A DNA stretch of 39,780 nt from Bacillota bacterium (GTDB taxonomy: Bacteria > Bacillota > UBA4882 > UBA10575): assembly GCA_012837715.1 (NCBI GenBank), contig DUQR01000046.1, positions 1-39,780 on the forward strand. The letters run 5' to 3'. Below, one piece after another: positions 3 through 11,793 of this stretch (position 1 is its first letter; the number at the start of each line of letters is the position of its first letter). The notes under the pieces are model-generated. The model saw nothing but the letters and a program-made list of their open reading frames with translations. It made no database searches and had not been told where the DNA came from. The translations under genes and the position numbers were made by a program.

Positions 3-800
3 TTGTACAAAGCCATCGATTGGCCGTGGATGACCGATGGTGGCGTCACTTTAAGGATGGGCTGGACAGAAGAGAAGGGTTTTACCAACGACCGGTGGGG
101 GGACCGGTTTGACGAGGGGTTACTGGCCACCCTCCTGGCCATGGGTTCACCGACGCACCCGATTTCCCCGGCGGCATGGGACGAAATTGACCGCTCGGTG
201 GAGCATACTAATCCGTACACCGATGAGACACATATTGCCTTGAAAGCTGAAACCCTCTTTGTCTACCAGTTCCCCTTAATCTTCTTTGACCTTCGGGATA
301 CGACCGACGGTCATGGGATTGATTACTTTGAAAATGCCGTGAAAGCGACCAAGTACAACCGGGACTATACGATGATTACCCATGCTGACAGGTATGGGGT
401 CTACGGGGAGGCCTGGGGGTTAAGTGCCGAGGACAAACCCTATAGCGGCTATCATGCCTATGGCGCCCGGGAACTGAACGAAGACGGCACTATTGCGCCG
501 TACACCTCGGTCTCCGCCTTGCCTTTTCTCCCGGAAGAGGCGATGGCGTCAATAAAGGCAATGGTCAACAACTTCCCGCGGGTCTACGACAAATACGGTT
601 TTCACGCCGGATTTAATCTGATTCATGAATGGGTTGAGGAACTAGGGCCATGGTATTCCCAAAACTACATCGGGATTGACCAAGGGGCCATCTTGCTCTC
701 GATCGCCAACTACCAATCGGAGTTGGTGTGGAAGTATTTTATGAAAAATCCTTACGTCTTAGAGGCGTTAAAGCGGGCCGGCTTTGACAAGTATCAATAA
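3..800 (+). CDS. PF10091 glucoamylase-like enzyme, C-terminal part (5' end outside window)
   Basis: The frame is open to the left edge, so this is the C-terminal 265 residues of a larger protein. The pattern GSPTHPI near residue 50, a WGLSA...GY.AYGA stretch around 140-160, a SVSALPF...EEA block and the ending IGIDQGAILLSIANY...LVWKYFM are the signature of the glucoamylase-like domain PF10091. That domain is found in endo-beta-1,2-glucanases (GH144) and in the cyclic beta-1,2-glucan synthase middle domain. It faces the GH94/ABC/GH35 operon tail to tail, which suggests a shared substrate. Family is secure; the exact substrate is inferred. The localisation signal, if any, lies outside the window. 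A strong terminator follows. Confidence 0.85.
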   Translation: MYKAIDWPWMTDGGVTLRMGWTEEKGFTNDRWGDRFDEGLLATLLAMGSPTHPISPAAWDEIDRSVEHTNPYTDETHIALKAETLFVYQFPLIFFDLRDTTDGHGIDYFENAVKATKYNRDYTMITHADRYGVYGEAWGLSAEDKPYSGYHAYGARELNEDGTIAPYTSVSALPFLPEEAMASIKAMVNNFPRVYDKYGFHAGFNLIHEWVEELGPWYSQNYIGIDQGAILLSIANYQSELVWKYFMKNPYVLEALKRAGFDKYQ

Positions 801-1010: not shown

Positions 1011-3425
1011 TTATTGCCAAGCGAGGACGATCAATTGCTCCCGGTCGCCCTGGAGGGTTAATGCATAATAGTGGTCCCTTGCTTGAACGGCGACCGGATG
1101 GCCATCAATGGTAACCTGGGGCGGCGAAGAGCTGGAAAAGAGCAACTCGCATTCGTCAGGATGAAGCGGTTGGACCAAAATTTCCACCCGCTCCGTTTGG
1201 CGGTCGATCTTCAGCACTTCCCCCGTGGTCCAGAGGAGAGAGGCATCATGAAGACCAAGGGGATAATGGACCGGGATGATTAGGCCGCGGACCGGAGGGA
1301 GGCTTACTGTTTTTACCGTCGGCAGTTTAATACCCATATTCGCGGCAAGGCTTTCCAGATTAACCTGGGTTTGCTGGTGAACCGGGGTATAGTTCAGGAT
1401 AAAAAGGAAGGCGTAATCCTTTCCGAGCCGTAAATGATACTGCAGTTCCGGATTGGTTAATTTAACCAAAGAGGATTCCGGCGCTAAGGCGGCCAGTTTT
1501 TCCAAGGCGGTAAGGTGTTCCGCGATGTTATAACCAAAACAGGTACCAAGCAAAGTGACTTGGCCGCGGCCAATCCGGCGGGTCAGACCGCAACAGGCCC
1601 CGTCGGTGGTGTAGGCAAATTTTTCTGTTTTTCCGGGGATAGTGCGCTCTGGTTCAAAAACGCGGATCGGTGACAAGACGCTAATATCCTTCAGCTCAAA
1701 GAGGGCGATTTTGGCTTCTTCGGGAATCATCTTCCGGGGAGTGCCTTCGGTCAGACCGAAACTTTCCTTCATCAGGGTACAGGGGTTAAAGTTTAGATCG
1801 CGGTCGGGTAGACCCGGCCAGATAAAGAGGTGTCCCCCTTCTTTCACGTAGTTAACCAGTTGCGCTTGAGTTTCCCGATCCATATATTCCAGGGCTAAAA
1901 CCCACAGGCGGCGATGGATTTGGGGATCAACCTTGGTTAGCTTCGGATCAATAAATTCAAATTCACGGTTTTGTAAGACCATCATCCGGAGAAAGCCATC
2001 AAAAAAATAGGTGTTGCGCATGGTTTTTGGATCATAATGCAAATCGACGGCTGCAGGGTCGATTTTGGGAACGCCGCCAAAAACCGGGTAAAAGAATTCA
2101 TCATAAAAGTAAGGTTGATAGAAGAGAACCCCGGTCTGGACCGGCTTTTCGGTTTGGATTAAGGCCGGACCGAAGGTCCTAATGATCTGCCCCAACTTCT
2201 GGGCGACGGGATACAGTTGGTTTTCGGTGGCTTCTGTTCCCAGCGGGGTCTCCCAATAGAAGGTGGGTCCTAAAGCGCCACGGCCTTGCGGGTTTTGGCC
2301 TTGGGAGAACATATATAAGTTCATCCCGGTCATCCCCCGGGCCAGGCAGGCCAGATAAAACAGGTCCATTTCATTGGGAAAGGTGCGGACATTATGTTCT
2401 CTCGTCCCCGCCTGTAGTTCGGCGGACCAGATGGGTTTCTGTCCGCCTTGGACGGCGCGAACCAGCTCATTGATGATTAGATCGTCATGTAAATTACGAT
2501 AGGTCGGGTTTTCGGGGATATGATCGATTCCGAAAAGGAGTTCGGGGTGGCGTTGAATGATCTCCGTGTAAAAGGAGATGTTGACCGGGTATTCGGTGCC
2601 CCGGCCAAAGACCCAGCCCGGTATATTGTGAAACAAGAGGAGATCAATCCCGCGACTACGGATCTGTCCAATCAGCCTGGATAAGTATTCCGCGTAGTAC
2701 CAACGGTGGAAATCATGCCAGTCCCGCCAACGCACCAATTCCCGGCTGGTCGAGGCCGGGTTTACCGGCGGCGCGACTTCATTAAAATCAGGATAATTGC
2801 TCCGGTAAGCTTTATTCAGCTTGTCGATGGTTTGATATTGTTTGCGAAGATACCGATGGTAATAATTGCGGACCGTCGGGCTTGTGTCCGCCGTCCCGGC
2901 CAACCAATTAAAGAGCCCAACTTCGTTACAGACTTGCATCATAATCAGTGGACCGCCCTTGGAGATTTGGTATGGCGCCAAGAGCGGGAGAACGGCATCA
3001 TACCATTTTTGCACGTACTCTTGGAAGACCGGGTGCAAATAGGTAACCATATCAAGCCCTTCGGCCTTAATCTGCGGGTGGGCCTTTAATAACCAGGCGG
3101 GAATCCCCCGGTCTTGAAATTCAGCCAAGATGTAGGGGCCCGGTTTGACTAACATATATAATCTTTCATCGACGGCGGCTTTGATAAAGCCAACCAGATC
3201 CCGTTGGGGGTTGGTTTCCCCTGTGAAATCAAAGCACCCCTCCGCATATTCATGCCAAGACCAAGGGATATAGGTAGAGACGGTAGTGGCGCCGGCCGCT
3301 TTTAATTTTCTGAGGTGAGTGGCCCAGAGTTCACGTTTCAGGCGGAAGTAATGGATCTCTCCGCTATAAAGAAAAAATGGCTGCTTATTTAGATAAAAGC
3401 TTCTTTGTTTGGCAGTAAAAATCAC
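1011..3425 (-). CDS. GH35 family glycoside hydrolase (beta-galactosidase-like)
   Basis: 804 residues without a signal peptide, so cytoplasmic. SGEIHYFR at residues 21-28 opens the GH35 TIM barrel. The acid/base glutamate is E168 in QVCNEVG (the usual form is QVENEYG), and E336 in KPIWSAELQAG fits the nucleophile. The GTG start at 3425 has AGGAGG just upstream. It is the last gene of the leftward operon, about 120 bases after the second permease and behind a small intercistronic hairpin. Family knowledge says exo-acting beta-galactosidase; the altered motif and the operon leave room for another beta-glycoside, for example trimming imported oligosaccharides alongside the GH94 enzyme. Family is sure, substrate is not. 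Confidence 0.88.
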   Translation of the reverse strand: MIFTAKQRSFYLNKQPFFLYSGEIHYFRLKRELWATHLRKLKAAGATTVSTYIPWSWHEYAEGCFDFTGETNPQRDLVGFIKAAVDERLYMLVKPGPYILAEFQDRGIPAWLLKAHPQIKAEGLDMVTYLHPVFQEYVQKWYDAVLPLLAPYQISKGGPLIMMQVCNEVGLFNWLAGTADTSPTVRNYYHRYLRKQYQTIDKLNKAYRSNYPDFNEVAPPVNPASTSRELVRWRDWHDFHRWYYAEYLSRLIGQIRSRGIDLLLFHNIPGWVFGRGTEYPVNISFYTEIIQRHPELLFGIDHIPENPTYRNLHDDLIINELVRAVQGGQKPIWSAELQAGTREHNVRTFPNEMDLFYLACLARGMTGMNLYMFSQGQNPQGRGALGPTFYWETPLGTEATENQLYPVAQKLGQIIRTFGPALIQTEKPVQTGVLFYQPYFYDEFFYPVFGGVPKIDPAAVDLHYDPKTMRNTYFFDGFLRMMVLQNREFEFIDPKLTKVDPQIHRRLWVLALEYMDRETQAQLVNYVKEGGHLFIWPGLPDRDLNFNPCTLMKESFGLTEGTPRKMIPEEAKIALFELKDISVLSPIRVFEPERTIPGKTEKFAYTTDGACCGLTRRIGRGQVTLLGTCFGYNIAEHLTALEKLAALAPESSLVKLTNPELQYHLRLGKDYAFLFILNYTPVHQQTQVNLESLAANMGIKLPTVKTVSLPPVRGLIIPVHYPLGLHDASLLWTTGEVLKIDRQTERVEILVQPLHPDECELLFSSSSPPQVTIDGHPVAVQARDHYYALTLQGDREQLIVLAWQ

Positions 3426-3548: not shown

Positions 3549-4424
3549 TTACCCTTTTATCCCTGTTGTCGAAATCCCTTTGACGATGAATTTTTGTCCG
3601 GCTAAGAAGATCAAAAAGAGTGGTAATAAAACCAGCACCGCCCCAGCCATAACGACGCCAAAAGTTGTGCTGGCCTGGTTTTGCCCAAAAAGGGTATAAA
3701 GGGCGACTTGCAGCGTGTACATACTACTATCCGTCGCAATAATTGCCGGCCAGAGAAAGTCACGCCACATTCCGGTAAAGTTGAGAATGCCAAGGGTGGC
3801 TAAAGCAGGTTTGAGTAAAGGAATGATGATCTTAAAGAAGATCAGCCCTTCGCTGGCCCCGTCAATCCGGGCGACCTCACATAGTTCATTGGGAATGCCC
3901 AGCATATATTGGCGGAGAAAAAAGATATTAAAGACATTGGCCAGCGGGGGGATGATCAGCGCACGATAGGTATTGAGCCAGCCCAGAAAATTGATGGAAA
4001 GATAGTTCGGGATGAGCGTGACCTGTGAAGGAATCATCATGGTTGCAAGAAAAATCATAAACAAAAGATCGCGACCGGGAAAACGTAATTTTGAAAAAGC
4101 GTAAGCCGCCATCGCCGGGACTAAAAGCGCGCCAATGGTGTAAGAGACAGTAACGATTAAGGTGTTTTGGAAGGCTTTGGCAAAATCGATCTCTTGTTTG
4201 AAGAGGTTGATATAATTTTCAAAGGAGATGTGTTTTGGGATTAACCGCGGCGGTATCTCGAAGATGGCCTCTTGGCTTTTGAAAGAAGTCGAAATCATCC
4301 AAAAGAGGGGGAGTATTGTGGAGAGGAGGCCAACGATTAAAAGCAGATAGATACCGATCTTAAGCAGAAGCTCTTTCGGCGGCACCCGTTTTTTGAAGTT
4401 GCGGTTAATAGTCGCCGCTTCCAT
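3549..4424 (-). CDS. ABC sugar transporter permease, MalG/UgpE type
   Basis: About 291 residues with six predicted membrane segments. The EAA loop that contacts the ATPase reads EVARIDGASEGLIFFKIIIP, as in carbohydrate uptake (CUT1) permeases. I choose the ATG at 4424 because AGGAGGG sits six bases upstream; a TTG two codons earlier falls against the ribosome site. It lies 18 bases after the partner permease. No ATPase gene is present in the operon, which is normal for CUT1 systems that share an MsmX/MsmK-type ATPase. Confidence 0.93.
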   Translation of the reverse strand: MEAATINRNFKKRVPPKELLLKIGIYLLLIVGLLSTILPLFWMISTSFKSQEAIFEIPPRLIPKHISFENYINLFKQEIDFAKAFQNTLIVTVSYTIGALLVPAMAAYAFSKLRFPGRDLLFMIFLATMMIPSQVTLIPNYLSINFLGWLNTYRALIIPPLANVFNIFFLRQYMLGIPNELCEVARIDGASEGLIFFKIIIPLLKPALATLGILNFTGMWRDFLWPAIIATDSSMYTLQVALYTLFGQNQASTTFGVVMAGAVLVLLPLFLIFLAGQKFIVKGISTTGIKG

Positions 4425-4442
4425 AATCAACCCTCCTAAAAG

Positions 4443-5321
4443 TTAATATTGTTGGTCACCGAATTTAATCTGCAGTAAGGTGACAATAAAAATAAAGGCA
4501 AAGAGAATATAGGACGAGGCCGCCGCATAGCCCATTTTGAAGTAACGGAAGCCATTTTCGTAGATGAATAAGACAATCGTTTTCGTCGCATCCATTGGTC
4601 CTCCCCCGTTCGTCAGGGTTAATGGTTCAGTAAACAATTGAAAACCACCGATCATCGAAGTTATGCTAATGAATAAGGTGGTTGGCGCCAGGAGAGGGAT
4701 GGTGACATACCGAATTTTCTGCCATCGGTTCGCGCCATCAATCTCCGCCGCTTCGTACATTTGTTGGGGAATATTTTGCAGTCCGGCCAGGTACAGCATG
4801 GCATAATAACCCAAACTGCGCCAGACCACCAGCCCAACAATGGCAAGCATGGCGAATCTTACGTCCGTGAGCCAGCCGGGGCCTTTAATACCAAACCAGC
4901 TTAAAATATGGTTTAGGATCCCGTAGTCCTTGCTGACTAACCAATACCAGACCGTCGAGATGGCGATTCCATCACTGATGTAGGGCATAAAATAGCCCAT
5001 CCGGAAAAAATTGCGTAGTTTGATGAGGGGCAAATTCAACAGTAAGGCCAGGGTTAATGAGAGGACCAGGACCAGGGGCACCATTAAAACAACAAAATAC
5101 AAGGTGTTAACGATGCATTTTAAAAAAAGCTCATCTTGCAAGAGATAACGGTAGTTTTTCAAGCCGATAAATTTGGCGTTTCCCCAGTTGACTAAGGAAC
5201 GGACATTGAAATCGGTTAAACTAATATATAAGGAAAAGAAAACCGGAAAAATGACAAAGCAAAAGATAATGATCAGCGAAGGTGAAAGAAACAAGAACGG
5301 AGTCAAGTACTTTTTTCTCAC
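4443..5321 (-). CDS. ABC sugar transporter permease, MalF/UgpA type
   Basis: 292 residues, six predicted transmembrane helices beginning KYLTPFLFLSPSLIIIFCF. The EAA motif is EAAEIDGANRWQKIRYVTIP. The GTG start at 5321 follows an AAGGGGG ribosome site. With the neighbouring MalG-type permease it forms the membrane channel of a CUT1 importer fed by the binding protein encoded just upstream. Specificity cannot be read from the permeases; the flanking GH94 and GH35 genes point to oligosaccharides. Confidence 0.93.
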   Translation of the reverse strand: MRKKYLTPFLFLSPSLIIIFCFVIFPVFFSLYISLTDFNVRSLVNWGNAKFIGLKNYRYLLQDELFLKCIVNTLYFVVLMVPLVLVLSLTLALLLNLPLIKLRNFFRMGYFMPYISDGIAISTVWYWLVSKDYGILNHILSWFGIKGPGWLTDVRFAMLAIVGLVVWRSLGYYAMLYLAGLQNIPQQMYEAAEIDGANRWQKIRYVTIPLLAPTTLFISITSMIGGFQLFTEPLTLTNGGGPMDATKTIVLFIYENGFRYFKMGYAAASSYILFAFIFIVTLLQIKFGDQQY

Positions 5322-5426: not shown

Positions 5427-6647
5427 TTAGTAATCAGCCATGATCTTTTCCAAGTCTTTCGCCAGAAGTTGGCAGGCTTCCAGTGGTGTTCTAACTCCAT
5501 AACAAGCCTCTTGGATGCGGGTATTAAGCCGGCCTTCAATCTCTGGCCATTGCGGGACGACCGGTGGCGCCACCCCTTCCTTCAGTTGTTCAAAAACGAT
5601 CTTCATGAGTGGGTCTTTTTCCGCGGCGATGGCCATGGCTTCCATATTCGCAGGAATGGAACCGGCTGCTTCGCGCCAATGGTCTTGAATCTCCGGTCGA
5701 CTCAGAAATTCGATCAGTTTCCAAGCGGCTTCTTTGCGCCGGGCGTCTTTAAAGATGGCTAGACCACAGCCGCCCATGAAAGAGGCACGGGTTTTCTTCT
5801 TCGGCATCAAGGCAATCGACCATTTACCATCCAATTGGGGGGTTTCGGTGCGGATCAGGTTCCCCTCCCAAAAACCGCCAACAAAAATAGGCAGCCTTCC
5901 ACTGGCTAAATCTTGCCTGATATTAGAGCCGCCAGTATCAAGAAGGGCGTATTCATTCTTAAAGATATCAACGAGCCATGCCACCGCCTCCACAAAGGCC
6001 TCTTCAGTTACGGCGGGGCGTCCGTTTTCATCAAAAATCCGGCCGCCATTGGCCCAGATAAAATTCATGGTGACCTGCCAGTTGCCAGCGGCCATATTGA
6101 CGGCGTGCTGGTTAGGGCCTCTTGCCCGTAATTTCTGGCAACAGTCAATAAATTCATCCCATGTATCCGGAAACTCTTTATAGCCAATTTCCTCCAGAAT
6201 ATCGGTGCGATAAAATAAAAATCTTGTATCCGCATACCAAGGGATACCGTATGGTTTACCGTTTACAATATAAAGATCGCGACAGGCCGGAAAGAAATCA
6301 TCCAGCTTTAAGCTCTCTGATTTCGCCAAGTAGGGCGAGAGATCTTCCAAAGCCCCGGCGATTGTAAATTGGGCCATATAAGTCGAACCCATCTGAACAA
6401 GGTCGGGGACGGTGCCGCCGGCCACCGCGGTGATCAGCCGGTCGTTTGCGGCTGACCAGGGAATTACTTGGAGTTTGACTTTAATTCCCGGATTTTCCGC
6501 TTCAAACTGGGGCAATAGCTTACCAATGTTTTGGCCTTCCACACCCATCGCCCATAGGGAAACTGTTTCTACGCTTTTCCCGCTGATCGGAATAGTTCCC
6601 ATCAACAGGAGAAGCAAGAGGATAACCAACAATCCTGATTTTTTCAT
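5427..6647 (-). CDS. ABC sugar-binding protein (extracellular, family 1)
   Basis: About 406 residues. An N-terminal Lys-rich segment and Leu/Ile core (MKKSGLLVILLLLLLMG) form a signal peptide; there is no lipobox cysteine, so it is either released or held by the uncleaved signal. The body has the SBP_bac pattern: WAMGVEG, FEAENPGIKVK, PWYADTRFLFYRTDIL, and a C-terminal KEAAWKLIEFLSRPEIQ. ATG at 6647 is chosen because TGGAGG lies seven bases upstream; the earlier ATG at 6653 abuts it. It is the solute receptor of the CUT1 importer and sits between the triple-module protein and the permeases. Confidence 0.92.
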   Translation of the reverse strand: MKKSGLLVILLLLLLMGTIPISGKSVETVSLWAMGVEGQNIGKLLPQFEAENPGIKVKLQVIPWSAANDRLITAVAGGTVPDLVQMGSTYMAQFTIAGALEDLSPYLAKSESLKLDDFFPACRDLYIVNGKPYGIPWYADTRFLFYRTDILEEIGYKEFPDTWDEFIDCCQKLRARGPNQHAVNMAAGNWQVTMNFIWANGGRIFDENGRPAVTEEAFVEAVAWLVDIFKNEYALLDTGGSNIRQDLASGRLPIFVGGFWEGNLIRTETPQLDGKWSIALMPKKKTRASFMGGCGLAIFKDARRKEAAWKLIEFLSRPEIQDHWREAAGSIPANMEAMAIAAEKDPLMKIVFEQLKEGVAPPVVPQWPEIEGRLNTRIQEACYGVRTPLEACQLLAKDLEKIMADY

Positions 6648-6674
6648 TTTCATCCCTCCATATGATTAATCCCG

Positions 6675-8285
6675 TTAGTCGGCCATATAAATTCCATCAA
6701 TATAAAAAGGTTTCGTAATCGGGATTTTAAGACCATCTTGATCTGTAGCCCAACAGATAATGTAGAGGTTATAGAACCCGTTTTCAATAACCTCCTTCAT
6801 TGGCGGAGAAAGGGGATAATGCACCTCATTCCATCCTTTTACGGCTTTTTGCGGTGAAGCAATGCCATCGATCCAGCTCCAACCTTCGTTGCTGTCGGCC
6901 ATTCCCAGGAAGAAATCGGTCAATTCACAGTCTTCCGGTATATAGAAATTGATTACAAGTTCGTTGTGGTTGTTCCAGAGCGTAGTCCGCTCACCGGTTA
7001 AATCAAGGGCAACTTTCGTCTCAATCGCATTGCCACTGGGGATAACTTGGCAGGAGAAATCTCCCTGGAAAACAATGTCTGCATTCAAGATGAAGACTGC
7101 GCCGGTGTTATCATTGGTGAATTTGCCGATTTCGTCTTCACTTTCCATCTCCCATAGGTAATCAATCTTATCCAGTTTAACACCATCGATATAAAAAGGT
7201 TTCGTGATGGGGAGTTTGCGCCCATCGGGATCAGTGGCCCAGCAGATAATATAAAGATTATATTTGCCGTTATGGATAACATACCGCATTTTATCGGAAA
7301 GGGTATAATGAACTTCATTCCACCCTTTTGTGGCTATGTGGTCAGATTGCACTCCATCAACCCAACTCCAACCATCATTACTGTCGCCCATCCCTAAAAA
7401 GAAGGTGTTTAGTTCGCAATCATCGGGAATATAGAAATTAATAATTAATTCCCGATGACCGTTCCACTGATTTACTCTGGGGCTTGTTAAGTCCAGGGCG
7501 ATTTTAGTTTCAATTGCGTCACCACTGGGGATTACTTTACACGAAAAGTCGCCTTCAATCGTATAGTCCGCACTGAGCTCGAATTGGGCCCCGGTATTAT
7601 CATTGCTATATTTGGCAATTTCGTCCGCGGTCTCCATCCGCCAAAGGTATTCTGATTTGATTTGTTTGGGGGGCATAATCAGATAAGCGCCATCCAGATG
7701 GAAACTGTCCTCGAGCGGGACCCGCACACCATCTTTGGCCCCGACAAAACTGATGAAAAGAGCGTACTTTCGATCCACGGAAATTTCTTTCATGAATTGT
7801 TCATCAATATCAAAGACCAAGGTATTCCAGCCGGATTTAATTGCACCGGTCGCATTTTGGTCTAGTTTAACAGTTTGGATTACTAAACGGTCCTCAGTCA
7901 CATCCACCAAACCCAGGTAGAATTCGGAGGGAATAACCAAACTATCTGCGGAAAAGTGGACATTAAGCGCTATTTTTTGCGCTAGTTTCCACTGGGTGAG
8001 GTTTTCTTCACCGAGGAGCGGGAGAGTTACTTTGGTGATTAAAGACTTGCCGTTCGGGGTGACTTTAACCGAATTGTTCCCTTGAAAAAGCGGTTCTTTA
8101 GCCAGCGTAAAAGAACAACCAGTCTCATCATCCCCGTAAAGCTCCACCTCGGCCTTGCTTTCCATGGTTAATAAGTAATAGGGGGACTGATCGTTTTCTC
8201 CCGCCGATACCGTTGAGAGTGAGATTAATACCAGCAGTAAACATGTCACCCGCATCACGATTCGGGCTGACATTTGATCTGACAT
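6675..8285 (-). CDS. Secreted protein with three tandem ~165-residue modules, unknown family
   Basis: 536 residues. A signal peptide (MRVTCLLLVLISLSTVSAG) precedes three homologous modules at about 37-205, 213-375 and 377-536. Modules 2 and 3 are nearly identical in plan: YLW.ME...EI...(T/S)NDNTGA, FSC.VIPSG.AIETK.ALDLT, INFYIP.DCEL..FFLGM.DSN.GWSW, GWNEVHY.LS, YNLYIICWATD, P.TKPFYIDG. Module 1 is diverged but keeps DDETG, the GWN core and F.LDG. The alternating beta pattern and aromatic residues suggest a jelly-roll carbohydrate-binding fold. It lies between the GH94 and binding-protein genes of a sugar operon. I do not recognise the family; an accessory glycan-capture role is inferred. The start region carries a tandem 12-base duplication. 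Confidence 0.85.
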   Translation of the reverse strand: MSDQMSARIVMRVTCLLLVLISLSTVSAGENDQSPYYLLTMESKAEVELYGDDETGCSFTLAKEPLFQGNNSVKVTPNGKSLITKVTLPLLGEENLTQWKLAQKIALNVHFSADSLVIPSEFYLGLVDVTEDRLVIQTVKLDQNATGAIKSGWNTLVFDIDEQFMKEISVDRKYALFISFVGAKDGVRVPLEDSFHLDGAYLIMPPKQIKSEYLWRMETADEIAKYSNDNTGAQFELSADYTIEGDFSCKVIPSGDAIETKIALDLTSPRVNQWNGHRELIINFYIPDDCELNTFFLGMGDSNDGWSWVDGVQSDHIATKGWNEVHYTLSDKMRYVIHNGKYNLYIICWATDPDGRKLPITKPFYIDGVKLDKIDYLWEMESEDEIGKFTNDNTGAVFILNADIVFQGDFSCQVIPSGNAIETKVALDLTGERTTLWNNHNELVINFYIPEDCELTDFFLGMADSNEGWSWIDGIASPQKAVKGWNEVHYPLSPPMKEVIENGFYNLYIICWATDQDGLKIPITKPFYIDGIYMAD

Positions 8286-8343: not shown

Positions 8344-10713
8344 CTAAAAAATCACCTCCACGTGGTGAACGGCGCCATCGTTGTGCGGGTAAATTTTCGC
8401 ACCGTCGGTTTGGACGCCATCCACAACTATTTTTTTCTCTTCGCCGGTTACGGCCCGCCGGAAAGCAAGCTGGTAGAGGGCACCCCGGTAGGGTCGGGTG
8501 ACACGGAACTCTGCCCATTCGTCAGGAACCTGCGGGTTAATGATCAGACCATCCCAATCGGGGATAATCCCGCAGATCCCTTCCATGGCGACCAGAAACA
8601 ACCAAGTGGAAGAGCCAGTGTACCAGGTGAATCCACCCCGGCCGAAATGGGGTGAATCGGGGCCGTCAACATTACCGGGGGTCACATAGGGCTCGGCTTT
8701 ATATAAATCCGGATTAAGTCCCCGGTAAGGAGGGAGAAAATTTTTATAGGCTGTATAGGCCTGCTTTTTCTTCCCTAGCTTGCAGGCGGCCAAGATACCC
8801 CAGGTGGCGGCATGGGTGTAAACACCGCCGTTTTCCCGTAATCCCGGCGCGTATCTACTTAAATAACCGATTTCCGTCTGCGGAGTCTTATATGCGGGGT
8901 AAAAAAGGAGCGGTCCGTATTCACGGAAGAGATAAGTCTCCATCGCGCAAAAGATCTTTTCCCTTCGGTCAGGAGGGGCGATATCATTAAGGATGGCCCA
9001 GGATTGGGGGTTAAGAAAGATTTTTCCCTCTGCACAATTCTTACTCCCGAGGATGGCGCCATTATCACAGACGGCCCGGATATACCAGTCGCCATCCCAA
9101 CCATATGTATTGATTCGCGTCTTTAGTCGTTCCGCGGCGTGTAAATATTGTTCTTTGCGTTCGGAGTCATTACTTTTTTCCGCCACAACTGCAAATTCTT
9201 TTAGAATACCGGATAAGAATTGGGCCAACCAGATGCTTTCGCCTTTGCCTTCAACACCCACCGCATTCATGCCGTCGTTCCAATCCCCGTCGCCAATGAG
9301 GGGAAGCCCCCGCGGACTGAGCTGCGCCAGGCTAAAGCTTATGGCTTGACAACAGTGTTCATAGATGCTGGCTGGCGTTCCGTCTTTGTAAGGGACTTGT
9401 TCTTTGAGAAAGGCAAAATTGCCAGTCTCTTTTAGATATTTGATTACCACGAAGGGCAACCACAGCAGATTATCGGAGATCTTATTCTCCATCGCTATTT
9501 CTGAAATCGGATGCCACCAATGGTTTACTCTTCCTTCTGGAAACTGGTGGGCGGCATGCATTTTGATCTGTTGTTCGGTCCTGGCCGGGTCGATGTATAA
9601 AAAAATCTGGCTCGCCTGAAGCTGGTCACGGAAGCCATAGGCGCCACCCGCTTGGTAATAGCCGGTCCTTCCCCAGATATGGCCGGAGAGGGTTTGGTAT
9701 TTCAACCAAAGATTATTCATCAGATTGAAGCCGGGATCGGGAGTTTGAACAGAAGTGGTTGTTAAGAGTTGTCGCCAAAACTCTTTCGTGGCGGTGAAAG
9801 CTTCCTCTACGGCCATGGCGGATTGATATTTCATGCTCAGTTCGCTGGCTTGTTTTTTGTTTTCTTGCGCTACGGCGCCCAGAAGGTAAATAAGCTCCAC
9901 TTTTTGACCGGGAGCGATCACGACCTTGTTGTGAAGGCTACCGATGGGGTCAGTCCATTTGCCGGAGGCGCCACTCACAGCGCCCTTAAGAACGGCGGCC
10001 GGTTTCTCGATGCTTCCGTATAAACCCAAAAAATTTTCCTTATCGCCTTCGAAACCGGTGACGGGAAGATTAACACTGTGAAAAGCGTAGTATTCCCAAT
10101 TCCGGTTCCAATGCTGACCCTTTGCATTCGGGATCTCCCATAAGCGTTTTCGCGCGAAGAGGGTATTGCAGTCTTCATCAAATTGGGTCTCAACAAAAAG
10201 ACGGTGAAACTCACGGGCGTGGTCGGGCAGGCCTAAACACCATTCGAGGTAGGTGAAGAGGGAGAGATGTTTCTCCTGCCTACTTTGATTCTGTAGTTGG
10301 ACTCTCCAGATTTCCAGCGGCTCCTCCGGCGGGACAAAGATCGTAAGCGTGCTTTTGACCTTTTGATAAACCGAGCTGAATTTGGAGTAACCGATACCAT
10401 GGTTTACTTGGTAAAAATCGGGTTGGTGGCAAACAGGCTTCCAAGTAAGCGACCAGAATTGACCGGTGTCTTCGTCGCGCAGAAATAGGTATTTGCCGGA
10501 ATGATCTTGAATCAGGTCCTGATCCCAGCGGGTGATCCGATTGTGTGAAGCATGGGTCTTCCAACTGTAACCGCTACCAGTCTGCGAAAGGATAACCCCA
10601 TAATCACCCGGGCAGATGATATTCACCCAGGGGCGGGGGGTATCCGGCCTGGTAATAATATATTCGTCACCAGCATCATTAAAATATCCATATTTACTTT
10701 GAAATTGGGCCAA
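8344..10713 (-). CDS. GH94 family glycoside phosphorylase
   Basis: About 789 residues, no signal peptide, so cytoplasmic. The N-terminus YGYFNDAGDEYIITRPDTPRP followed by NRITRWDQDL and YLFLRDEDTG is the GH94 N-terminal beta-sandwich. The (alpha/alpha)6 barrel contains GDGDWNDGMN at about 474-483, which holds the general-acid aspartate. GH94 enzymes split beta-glucosides with phosphate to give alpha-glucose 1-phosphate. Known specificities include cellobiose, laminaribiose, chitobiose and beta-1,2-oligoglucan, so the substrate is open. TTG at 10713 is chosen because AAAGAGGTG lies six bases upstream; longer forms start inside that site. An operator palindrome lies 24 bases upstream. Confidence 0.9.
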   Translation of the reverse strand: MAQFQSKYGYFNDAGDEYIITRPDTPRPWVNIICPGDYGVILSQTGSGYSWKTHASHNRITRWDQDLIQDHSGKYLFLRDEDTGQFWSLTWKPVCHQPDFYQVNHGIGYSKFSSVYQKVKSTLTIFVPPEEPLEIWRVQLQNQSRQEKHLSLFTYLEWCLGLPDHAREFHRLFVETQFDEDCNTLFARKRLWEIPNAKGQHWNRNWEYYAFHSVNLPVTGFEGDKENFLGLYGSIEKPAAVLKGAVSGASGKWTDPIGSLHNKVVIAPGQKVELIYLLGAVAQENKKQASELSMKYQSAMAVEEAFTATKEFWRQLLTTTSVQTPDPGFNLMNNLWLKYQTLSGHIWGRTGYYQAGGAYGFRDQLQASQIFLYIDPARTEQQIKMHAAHQFPEGRVNHWWHPISEIAMENKISDNLLWLPFVVIKYLKETGNFAFLKEQVPYKDGTPASIYEHCCQAISFSLAQLSPRGLPLIGDGDWNDGMNAVGVEGKGESIWLAQFLSGILKEFAVVAEKSNDSERKEQYLHAAERLKTRINTYGWDGDWYIRAVCDNGAILGSKNCAEGKIFLNPQSWAILNDIAPPDRREKIFCAMETYLFREYGPLLFYPAYKTPQTEIGYLSRYAPGLRENGGVYTHAATWGILAACKLGKKKQAYTAYKNFLPPYRGLNPDLYKAEPYVTPGNVDGPDSPHFGRGGFTWYTGSSTWLFLVAMEGICGIIPDWDGLIINPQVPDEWAEFRVTRPYRGALYQLAFRRAVTGEEKKIVVDGVQTDGAKIYPHNDGAVHHVEVIF

Positions 10714-10736
10714 TCCTTGCACCTCTTTCTTCAAAA

Positions 10737-10762: not shown

Positions 10763-10792
10763 ATTAAAGGGCTTGACAGGAGGAACGCTCAA
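10763..10792 (-). promoter_or_regulatory. Possible internal promoter for the GH94 gene
   Basis: On the minus strand TTGAGC (10792-10787), 18 bases, then TTTAAT (10768-10763) sit at the end of the repressor gene. Operator O2 would then lie just downstream of the transcription start. The match is only moderate. Confidence 0.35.
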
Positions 10793-11765
10793 CCAAACTA
10801 GTTTTTAAGACCACTCTCCGTTGGGCCGGTTTTTCTTTGTAGATGAGCTGAAAAATAATCTCCGTTGCCCGTTTGCCCATTTCTTCAATGGGTTGTTTGA
10901 TCGTGGATAGAGGCGGTTCAACCACAGAAGATGCTTCGATATCATCGCAGCCGATGATCGAAAGATCTTGAGGCACTTGGAGACCTACTGACCGCGCTGC
11001 CGAAAGAATACCAATCGCCATTTGGTCATTGGCGGCGAAAACGGCGGTAGGTTTATTTTGTAAACGTTGTAAGGTAAGGAATGCTTGATAACCCCCTTCA
11101 CGTTTAAAGTCGCCCTGGCAAACCAGGTCTTCCGAATAGGAGAGACCATGATCCTGGAGTGCTTGACGGTAACCGCGAAAGCGTAATAAACTATCATTTG
11201 AGCTTTGCGGCCCGCCCACAAAAGCAATACGTTTATGACCCAGCCTGATCAGGTGTTCGGTTGCTTTGTAACCTGCTTCAAAATTATCCACATTTACCGT
11301 ATAGATGGATTTGTCCTCGAACGTCGAGTCGATCAAAACAAAGGGTATCTTCCGTTTTTTAAGGTTAACAATATAATCCAGGTCCAAAAAATAAGTCATC
11401 AGAATGATCCCATCGACCCGCCCAGTGGTAAACAGATCTACCATTTCCCGTTCCTTTTCGGGAAGGGCATGGGTGGTGCAGAGGTTAAGGGTAAAATTAT
11501 ATAAATTGGCAGTTTCCTCCACCCCGCGGACCACTTGGACGTAAAAATGGTCGCTAATATCCGGGATAATTAACCCTAACATCTCGGTGGATTTTCCGGC
11601 CAAGCCACGGGCAACGGTACTGGGATGGTAGTTCATTTCCTTCATGATTTTAAGGATTTTCTGCCGTGTTTCTTCGCTAACCCCTGGTTTATTGTTGATA
11701 ACATAAGAGACAGTTGCCTTTGTCACATTGGCGGCTTTGGCAATATCACTAATGGTTACTGGCAA
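10764..11765 (-). CDS. LacI-family transcriptional repressor of the sugar operon
   Basis: 333 residues. The helix-turn-helix VTISDIAKAANVTKATVSYV at residues 3-22 and the hinge helix HPSTVARGLAG precede a periplasmic-binding-protein-like effector domain (LGLIIPDISDHFY, GRVDGIILM, RIAFVGGP, TAVFAANDQMAIG, STIKQPIEEMG). TTG at 11765 is chosen because GGAGGGTGAT is directly upstream; an earlier TTG at 11780 lies before that site. It is first in the leftward operon and its own promoter carries the operator, so autoregulation and induction by a sugar are expected. CcpA-like global function is unlikely given the local operators. Confidence 0.92.
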   Translation of the reverse strand: MPVTISDIAKAANVTKATVSYVINNKPGVSEETRQKILKIMKEMNYHPSTVARGLAGKSTEMLGLIIPDISDHFYVQVVRGVEETANLYNFTLNLCTTHALPEKEREMVDLFTTGRVDGIILMTYFLDLDYIVNLKKRKIPFVLIDSTFEDKSIYTVNVDNFEAGYKATEHLIRLGHKRIAFVGGPQSSNDSLLRFRGYRQALQDHGLSYSEDLVCQGDFKREGGYQAFLTLQRLQNKPTAVFAANDQMAIGILSAARSVGLQVPQDLSIIGCDDIEASSVVEPPLSTIKQPIEEMGKRATEIIFQLIYKEKPAQRRVVLKTSLVERSSCQAL

Positions 11766-11781
11766 ATAATCACCCTCCAAC

Positions 11782-11793
11782 TTAACCGGTTAA
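11782..11793. promoter_or_regulatory. Operator O1, TTAACCGGTTAA
   Basis: The perfect palindrome overlaps the predicted transcription start of the lacI-type gene and abuts its ribosome binding site. Binding here would block initiation of the whole operon. Confidence 0.85.

What the first reader, a model, noticed from the sequence alone, without database searches (positions are those of the whole stretch)
6675..8285. Secreted protein of three tandem ~165-residue modules of unknown family inside a sugar operon
Modules 2 and 3 are strongly alike and module 1 is a diverged copy. The repeated INFYIP, GW.W, GWNEVHY and YNLYIICWATD blocks suggest a beta-sandwich with conserved aromatic residues. A multi-module extracellular protein encoded next to the solute receptor could concentrate glycan for the importer in a Gram-positive cell, a role not commonly described for CUT1 systems.
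Basis: partly seen in the sequence, partly recalled or inferred. Interest (0 to 1): 0.6.

Follow-up and report, generated by a model that had tools for sequence, protein, structure and literature searches.

The report
Candidate beta-1,2-glucan-binding module array
A bacterium with two membranes exports a protein made of three sugar-binding-like domains that elsewhere are built into enzymes cutting beta-1,2-glucan (a rare glucose polymer), so the protein probably captures that polymer for its import system and may found a new sugar-binding family.

Summary
The three modules are real, on the minus strand at 6675-8285. Modules 2 and 3 are 68% identical. Module 1 is a strongly diverged copy lacking the WxWVDG block.

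The family matches no credible Pfam, NCBIfam or PDB sequence. AlphaFold gives a confident beta-sandwich (pLDDT 96), and its PDB fold matches are led by carbohydrate-binding modules (CBM30/44, 22, 27, 11).

The gene sits in a LacI-controlled operon whose enzymes and solute receptor all have a beta-1,2-glucan protein as best solved relative. A second contig, shown by a congener to belong to the same locus, carries a porin-like barrel, a GH144-CBM9 enzyme and three more module proteins. The palindrome TTAACCGGTTAA occurs four times in the 2.4-Mb genome, always in this locus.

In other Bacillota, Thermotogota and Chloroflexota, one to four copies of the module are fused to GH144, often in the same GH94-receptor gap. 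In a Bacteroidota/Balneolota contig a single module follows SusC-SusD.

Best reading: a free-standing array of a candidate new CBM family capturing beta-1,2-glucan or its oligosaccharides, probably in the periplasm. Binding is untested. The "Gram-positive cell" premise is wrong: an Omp85 gene is present. The gene is absent from one congener with the same operon.

The parts
6675..8285 (-). ORF of the exported three-module protein (536 aa, ATG)
   Evidence: dN/dS about 0.11 against the G012 orthologue
8202..8285 (-). signal peptide, type I-like (...LLLVLISLSTVSA), no lipobox
   Evidence: read from the translation; inference, no predictor run
7677..8177 (-). module 1, diverged, lacks the WxWVDG block
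   Evidence: profile hit 2.8e-50; long branch 2.27 in the module tree; alignment
7170..7649 (-). module 2
   Evidence: profile hit 7.5e-67
6681..7160 (-). module 3 (structure predicted, pLDDT 96.4)
   Evidence: profile hit 5.6e-67; model; fold search
11782..11793 (.). palindromic operator TTAACCGGTTAA upstream of lacI
   Evidence: 4 copies in the genome, all in this locus; also upstream of lacI in G006 and in distant L046
10737..10748 (.). palindromic operator TTAACCGGTTAA between lacI and the GH94 operon
10764..11780 (-). LacI-family regulator
   Evidence: Pfam
8344..10734 (-). [quoted passage not shown]
   Evidence: Pfam; PDB 8rf9 2.6e-160
5427..6653 (-). solute receptor, closest to the beta-1,2-glucooligosaccharide receptor Lin1841
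   Evidence: PDB 5ysb 1.6e-82
4443..5321 (-). CUT1 permease 1
   Evidence: Pfam BPD_transp_1
3549..4430 (-). CUT1 permease 2
   Evidence: Pfam BPD_transp_1
1011..3425 (-). GH35 enzyme, closest to IaSGT beta-1,2-glucosyltransferase
   Evidence: PDB 7vkw 4.3e-173, seven active-site residues conserved
3..800 (+). 3' part of a GH144-type enzyme, cut by the contig start; continues the locus held on contig C17
   Evidence: Pfam PF10091 2.4e-56; contiguous order in G006

Best explanation
The gene encodes an enzyme-free array of a candidate new family of beta-sandwich carbohydrate-binding modules belonging to a beta-1,2-glucan utilisation regulon in an outer-membraned Bacillota bacterium. Shown by computation: the three-module anatomy, the CBM-type predicted fold, the fusion of the same module to GH144 enzymes in other phyla, and the shared operator sites. 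Inferred: glucan or its fragments cross the outer membrane through the porin encoded in the same regulon. Exported module proteins (three free or lipid-anchored paralogues plus this array) hold the chains near the GH144 enzymes, one of which lacks the N-terminal modules that its fused relatives carry. GH144 cuts the chains, and the products pass to the Lin1841-like receptor and CUT1 importer, then to GH94 phosphorolysis and GH35 transfer in the cytoplasm. Modules 2 and 3 are expected to bind; module 1 has lost the WxWVDG block and may be a spacer or bind something else.
For: Predicted structure pLDDT 96.4, pTM 0.90; the PDB fold matches are led by CBM30/44 (2c26, 1.4e-7), CBM22, CBM27, CBM11 and CBM4. 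Modules are fused N-terminally to GH144, often with CBM9: one to four copies in Bacillota, Thermotogota and Chloroflexota, often in the same gap between GH94 and the receptor (L046, L063-L065). Single module directly after SusC-SusD beside GH144 and GH3 in L068/L069. In 398 phylum genomes, 7 of 8 with modules also have a stand-alone GH144, against 6 of the other 390 (Fisher p 4.6e-11; genomes are related, so the p value is optimistic). Within the class, modules occur only in the 3 genomes with this locus. Every enzyme and the receptor have a beta-1,2-glucan protein as best solved relative. Operator TTAACCGGTTAA occurs 4 times in the genome, all in the locus, and 4 of 4 in G006.
Against: No binding data. 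Fold search TM-scores are moderate (0.5-0.67), and this fold also serves non-sugar ligands. The gene is missing in G006 although the rest of the locus is there, so it is not essential to the pathway. One module-bearing genome, G246, shows no GH144, though it is a fragmented MAG. The substrate rests on relatives, not on assays. The sequence does not decide between periplasm and cell exterior.
Confidence: 0.72

Rival explanations
1. The modules bind sugar, but a different glycan (for example the organism's own envelope polysaccharide), anchoring the machinery to the envelope rather than capturing the nutrient.
For: CBMs of this fold bind many glycans. The protein has no lipobox or other anchor, so a binding module could serve retention.
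Against: The family is tied to GH144 and beta-1,2-glucan genes across distantly related phyla with different envelopes, which points to the shared substrate.
Confidence: 0.12
2. The modules are structural spacers or protein-protein scaffolds that position GH144 or the receptor, without binding sugar themselves.
For: Module 1 has lost the conserved WxWVDG block. Tandem copy number varies from 1 to 4, as spacers often do.
Against: Strongly conserved aromatic and polar positions (P42, K50, W63, W97, G110-W111-N112, Y131). The predicted fold is that of CBMs. Single modules occur as separate secreted proteins, including the slot after SusD.
Confidence: 0.12
3. One reading: a cell-wall-attached glycan concentrator for a CUT1 importer in a Gram-positive cell.
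For: Exported, next to the receptor gene, CBM-like.
Against: Omp85/POTRA and a porin-like barrel in the locus mark an outer membrane. No cell-wall anchor in the sequence.
Confidence: 0.04
4. An Ig-like (CD47 V-set) or C-type-lectin domain, as weak database hits suggest.
For: Pfam V-set_CD47 over its cut-off for the whole protein (1.2e-5). C-type lectins top the PDB profile search at E 0.05 through a shared WxWVDG string.
Against: Single modules score only 0.059 against CD47, in 2 of 23 members. The shown top 50 of the fold search are led by CBMs, with no Ig V-set or C-type lectin among them.
Confidence: 0.01

Closest known systems
Beta-sandwich carbohydrate-binding modules (CBM30/44, CBM22, CBM27, CBM11, CBM4)
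   Same: Same predicted fold, similar size, tandem copies, fusion to secreted glycoside hydrolases
   Different: About 10-19% sequence identity in the fold alignments, no sequence-level match found; the associated enzymes act on beta-1,2-glucan
SusE/SusF and SGBP-type surface glycan-binding proteins of Bacteroidota
   Same: Free-standing tandem binding modules encoded in a glycan utilisation locus; in L068/L069 a module gene directly follows SusC-SusD
   Different: In the window genome no SusC/SusD is seen in the locus but a porin-like barrel plus an ABC importer; the three-module protein has no lipobox; no sequence relationship was tested
Ignavibacterium album beta-1,2-glucan cluster (PMC8861115)
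   Same: Two GH144, CGS-type GH94, IaSGT-type GH35, Lin1841-type receptor
   Different: The text read describes no module proteins of this kind, and I. album is not among the loci found by the module scan; it has a proposed TonB-dependent transporter, here a porin-like barrel
CBM92 (PMC11039641)
   Same: Can bind sophorose and sophoropentaose
   Different: Beta-trefoil fold, prefers beta-1,6-glucan; unrelated structure

Membership tests
Carbohydrate-binding module (CAZy sense) | Non-catalytic domain contiguous with a carbohydrate-active enzyme | tested here: met
   1-4 modules fused to GH144 in several phyla; in the window protein itself no enzyme is attached
Carbohydrate-binding module (CAZy sense) | Discrete fold of a CBM type | tested here: met
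   AF2 pLDDT 96.4; Foldseek list led by CBMs
Carbohydrate-binding module (CAZy sense) | Demonstrated carbohydrate binding | not testable with these tools
   needs ITC or affinity gel
A known CBM family | Sequence match to an existing family model | tested here: not met
   No credible match in Pfam or NCBIfam or PDB sequences; CAZy's own models were not available
Beta-1,2-glucan utilisation locus | GH144-type beta-1,2-glucanase | tested here: met
   PF10091 on both contigs; best PDB relatives of the G006 orthologue include XCC2207 and CpSGL; Glu aligned with the general-acid position (reading)
Beta-1,2-glucan utilisation locus | Receptor specific for beta-1,2-glucooligosaccharides | tested here: met
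   By homology only: Lin1841 far ahead of every other solved receptor
Beta-1,2-glucan utilisation locus | GH35 of the IaSGT type with its active site | tested here: met
   E176, E343, Y52, E102, N175, N275, Y378 all conserved
SGBP / SusE-F type surface protein | Lipid-anchored on the cell surface | tested here: not met
   Window protein has no lipobox; the 2-module and 211-aa paralogues do; surface exposure untested
SGBP / SusE-F type surface protein | Encoded with a SusC/SusD pair | tested here: inconclusive
   Met in L068/L069; no SusC/SusD among the genes of the window locus that were read

The most novel reading that the evidence does not exclude
The modules found a CBM family dedicated to beta-1,2-glucan, used both as enzyme appendages and as free or lipid-anchored capture proteins that work with a porin and an ABC importer: a Sus-like capture layer outside Bacteroidota. 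In one Bacillota MAG (L049/L066) two modules are fused directly to a predicted outer-membrane barrel.
Probability: 0.5. Interest if true: 0.66.

Novelty: new variant of a known kind. Interest (0 to 1): 0.52.

Why it matters
Beta-1,2-glucans act in symbiosis, infection and osmoregulation. In the open-access papers searched, no binding module dedicated to them was found; CBM92 binds sophoro-oligosaccharides but prefers beta-1,6-glucan. If the modules bind beta-1,2-glucan, they give a specific probe for this polymer, explain the extra domains of a whole set of GH144 enzymes, and show a Sus-like capture layer combined with a porin and an ABC importer in outer-membraned Bacillota.

Tried and rejected
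Pfam V-set_CD47 hit (above cut-off for the whole protein): rejected, since single modules score only 0.059 and the fold search is led by CBMs. Gene fission of a MOD-MOD-GH144-CBM9 ancestor against fusion: the GH144 tree does not resolve it. Relation of the 294-aa barrel to the 546-aa barrel-like part of L049: no BLAST hit at 1e-8; the latter is supported only by its amphipathic strand pattern (z 3.2, and 4.0 in its L062 homologue; the three-module protein itself scores 2.3) and a terminal Phe, not by a structure. GH35 as a beta-galactosidase or glucosaminidase: rejected, IaSGT is far closer.

Full report
Observation. The ORF at 6675-8285 lies on the minus strand (536 aa). It has a cleavable-looking signal peptide, no lipobox and three modules. 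Modules 2 and 3 are 68% identical, and module 1 is 30-33% identical to them; all three comparisons are far above shuffled sequence. The gene is conserved under purifying selection in G012 (dN/dS about 0.11 over 147 codons).

Operon. Gene order on the minus strand is lacI, GH94, three-module gene, solute receptor, two CUT1 permeases, GH35 (Pfam; gaps). [quoted passage not shown] That of the receptor is the sophoro-oligosaccharide receptor Lin1841. That of GH35 is the beta-1,2-glucosyltransferase IaSGT, with all seven active-site residues named in PMC8861115 conserved. The plus-strand fragment at 3-800 is GH144-like. The congener orthologue of that fragment, on L015, has XCC2207 and CpSGL among its best solved relatives; both are taken here as GH144 beta-1,2-glucanases (CpSGL and the Xanthomonas enzyme XcSGL from PMC12102758; that XCC2207 is XcSGL is my reading). 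The set resembles the Ignavibacterium album cluster described in PMC8861115.

The locus is wider than the window. Paralogous modules lie on contig C17: a two-module lipoprotein (cut by the contig end), a 211-aa lipoprotein and a 201-aa secreted protein, beside a GH144-CBM9 enzyme and a 294-aa barrel. Congener G006 carries both halves on one contig (L015), so C17 and C30 are very probably neighbours. G012 shows the same order with the three-module gene next to the receptor, up to the end of its contig (L014). In G006 the three-module gene is absent: the receptor and GH94 are adjacent.

Regulon. A 14-bp palindrome, CTTAACCGGTTAAG or one change from it, lies upstream of lacI, upstream of GH94 and upstream of the barrel gene. 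The 12-bp core TTAACCGGTTAA occurs exactly four times in the genome, the fourth between the barrel gene and the 201-aa module gene. It recurs at equivalent places in G006 (4 of 4 genome copies in the locus), in G012 (2 of 5 copies in the locus, whose contig ends before lacI) and around lacI in the distant L046. It is the likely operator of the LacI protein (inference).

Envelope. C17 carries an Omp85/POTRA gene. The 294-aa protein has a moderate-confidence model (pLDDT 69.8) whose fold matches are 16-strand porins, including OmpM1 of the diderm Firmicute Veillonella parvula. The organism is therefore very probably a diderm, and a secreted protein without a lipobox most likely stays in the periplasm.

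The module family. A profile of the modules finds them, within the class, only in the three genomes that hold this locus. Across 398 genomes of the phylum it finds eight. In most of the distant genomes the modules are fused to GH144, mostly with a C-terminal CBM9. A scan of all genome contigs adds Thermotogota (two to four modules plus GH144), Chloroflexota (one plus GH144) and a Bacteroidota/Balneolota contig with SusC, SusD, a single module, a phosphoesterase and GH3, beside a divergent GH144 gene. In L046 and L063-L065 the fused enzyme sits in the very gap between GH94 and the receptor that the free array occupies here. Co-occurrence with stand-alone GH144 is strong (7 of 8 against 6 of 390), with the caveat of relatedness.

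Structure. Module 3 is predicted with very high confidence. Its PDB fold matches are led by carbohydrate-binding modules: CBM30/44, CBM22, CBM27, CBM11, CBM4. Sequence libraries give nothing credible. Across 23 modules P42, K50, W63, G110-W111-N112 and Y131 are invariant and W97 nearly so; module 1 lacks the W95/W97 block and has the longest end branch of the module tree.

Mechanism and status. Best reading: a free-standing CBM array that holds beta-1,2-glucan or its fragments near GH144 and the receptor. The fold, the enzyme fusion and the regulon are computed results; binding, its specificity and the location are inferred. Whether the free array arose by splitting a fused enzyme is unresolved.

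Known context. CBM92 binds sophoro-oligosaccharides but is a beta-trefoil with a beta-1,6 preference. The open-access library searched returned no paper describing a beta-1,2-glucan-dedicated CBM; subscription papers and CAZy models could not be checked, so novelty is provisional.

Noticed in passing
L049:1074-3854 (-); same contig as L066: Two modules fused to a 546-aa barrel-like domain ending in Phe; a homologous barrel (about 50% identity) is a separate gene upstream of a two-module ORF in L062. Possible glycan-capturing outer-membrane channel.
   Followed up: partly
[quoted passage not shown] G012 has both. Suggests glucan consumers and producers in one genus.
   Followed up: partly
L015:9131-11212: The GH144-CBM9 gene of G006 is interrupted by a TGA codon (assembly error or broken gene).
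   Followed up: no
L068 and L069: Near-identical contigs are filed under Bacteroidales and Balneolaceae MAGs, so one is probably mis-binned.
   Followed up: no
L006:3509-4141 (-): 211-aa lipoprotein is a very diverged single-module paralogue with inserts, conserved in three genomes; its role may differ.
   Followed up: no
window:6678-8285 (Pfam PF08204): V-set_CD47 scores above its cut-off on this bacterial protein: a likely automatic mis-annotation.
   Followed up: yes
L006:6278-10637: FtsX-like permease, ABC ATPase and HlyD-like adaptor genes divergent from the barrel gene, also present beside the locus in G006; relation to the locus unknown.
   Followed up: no
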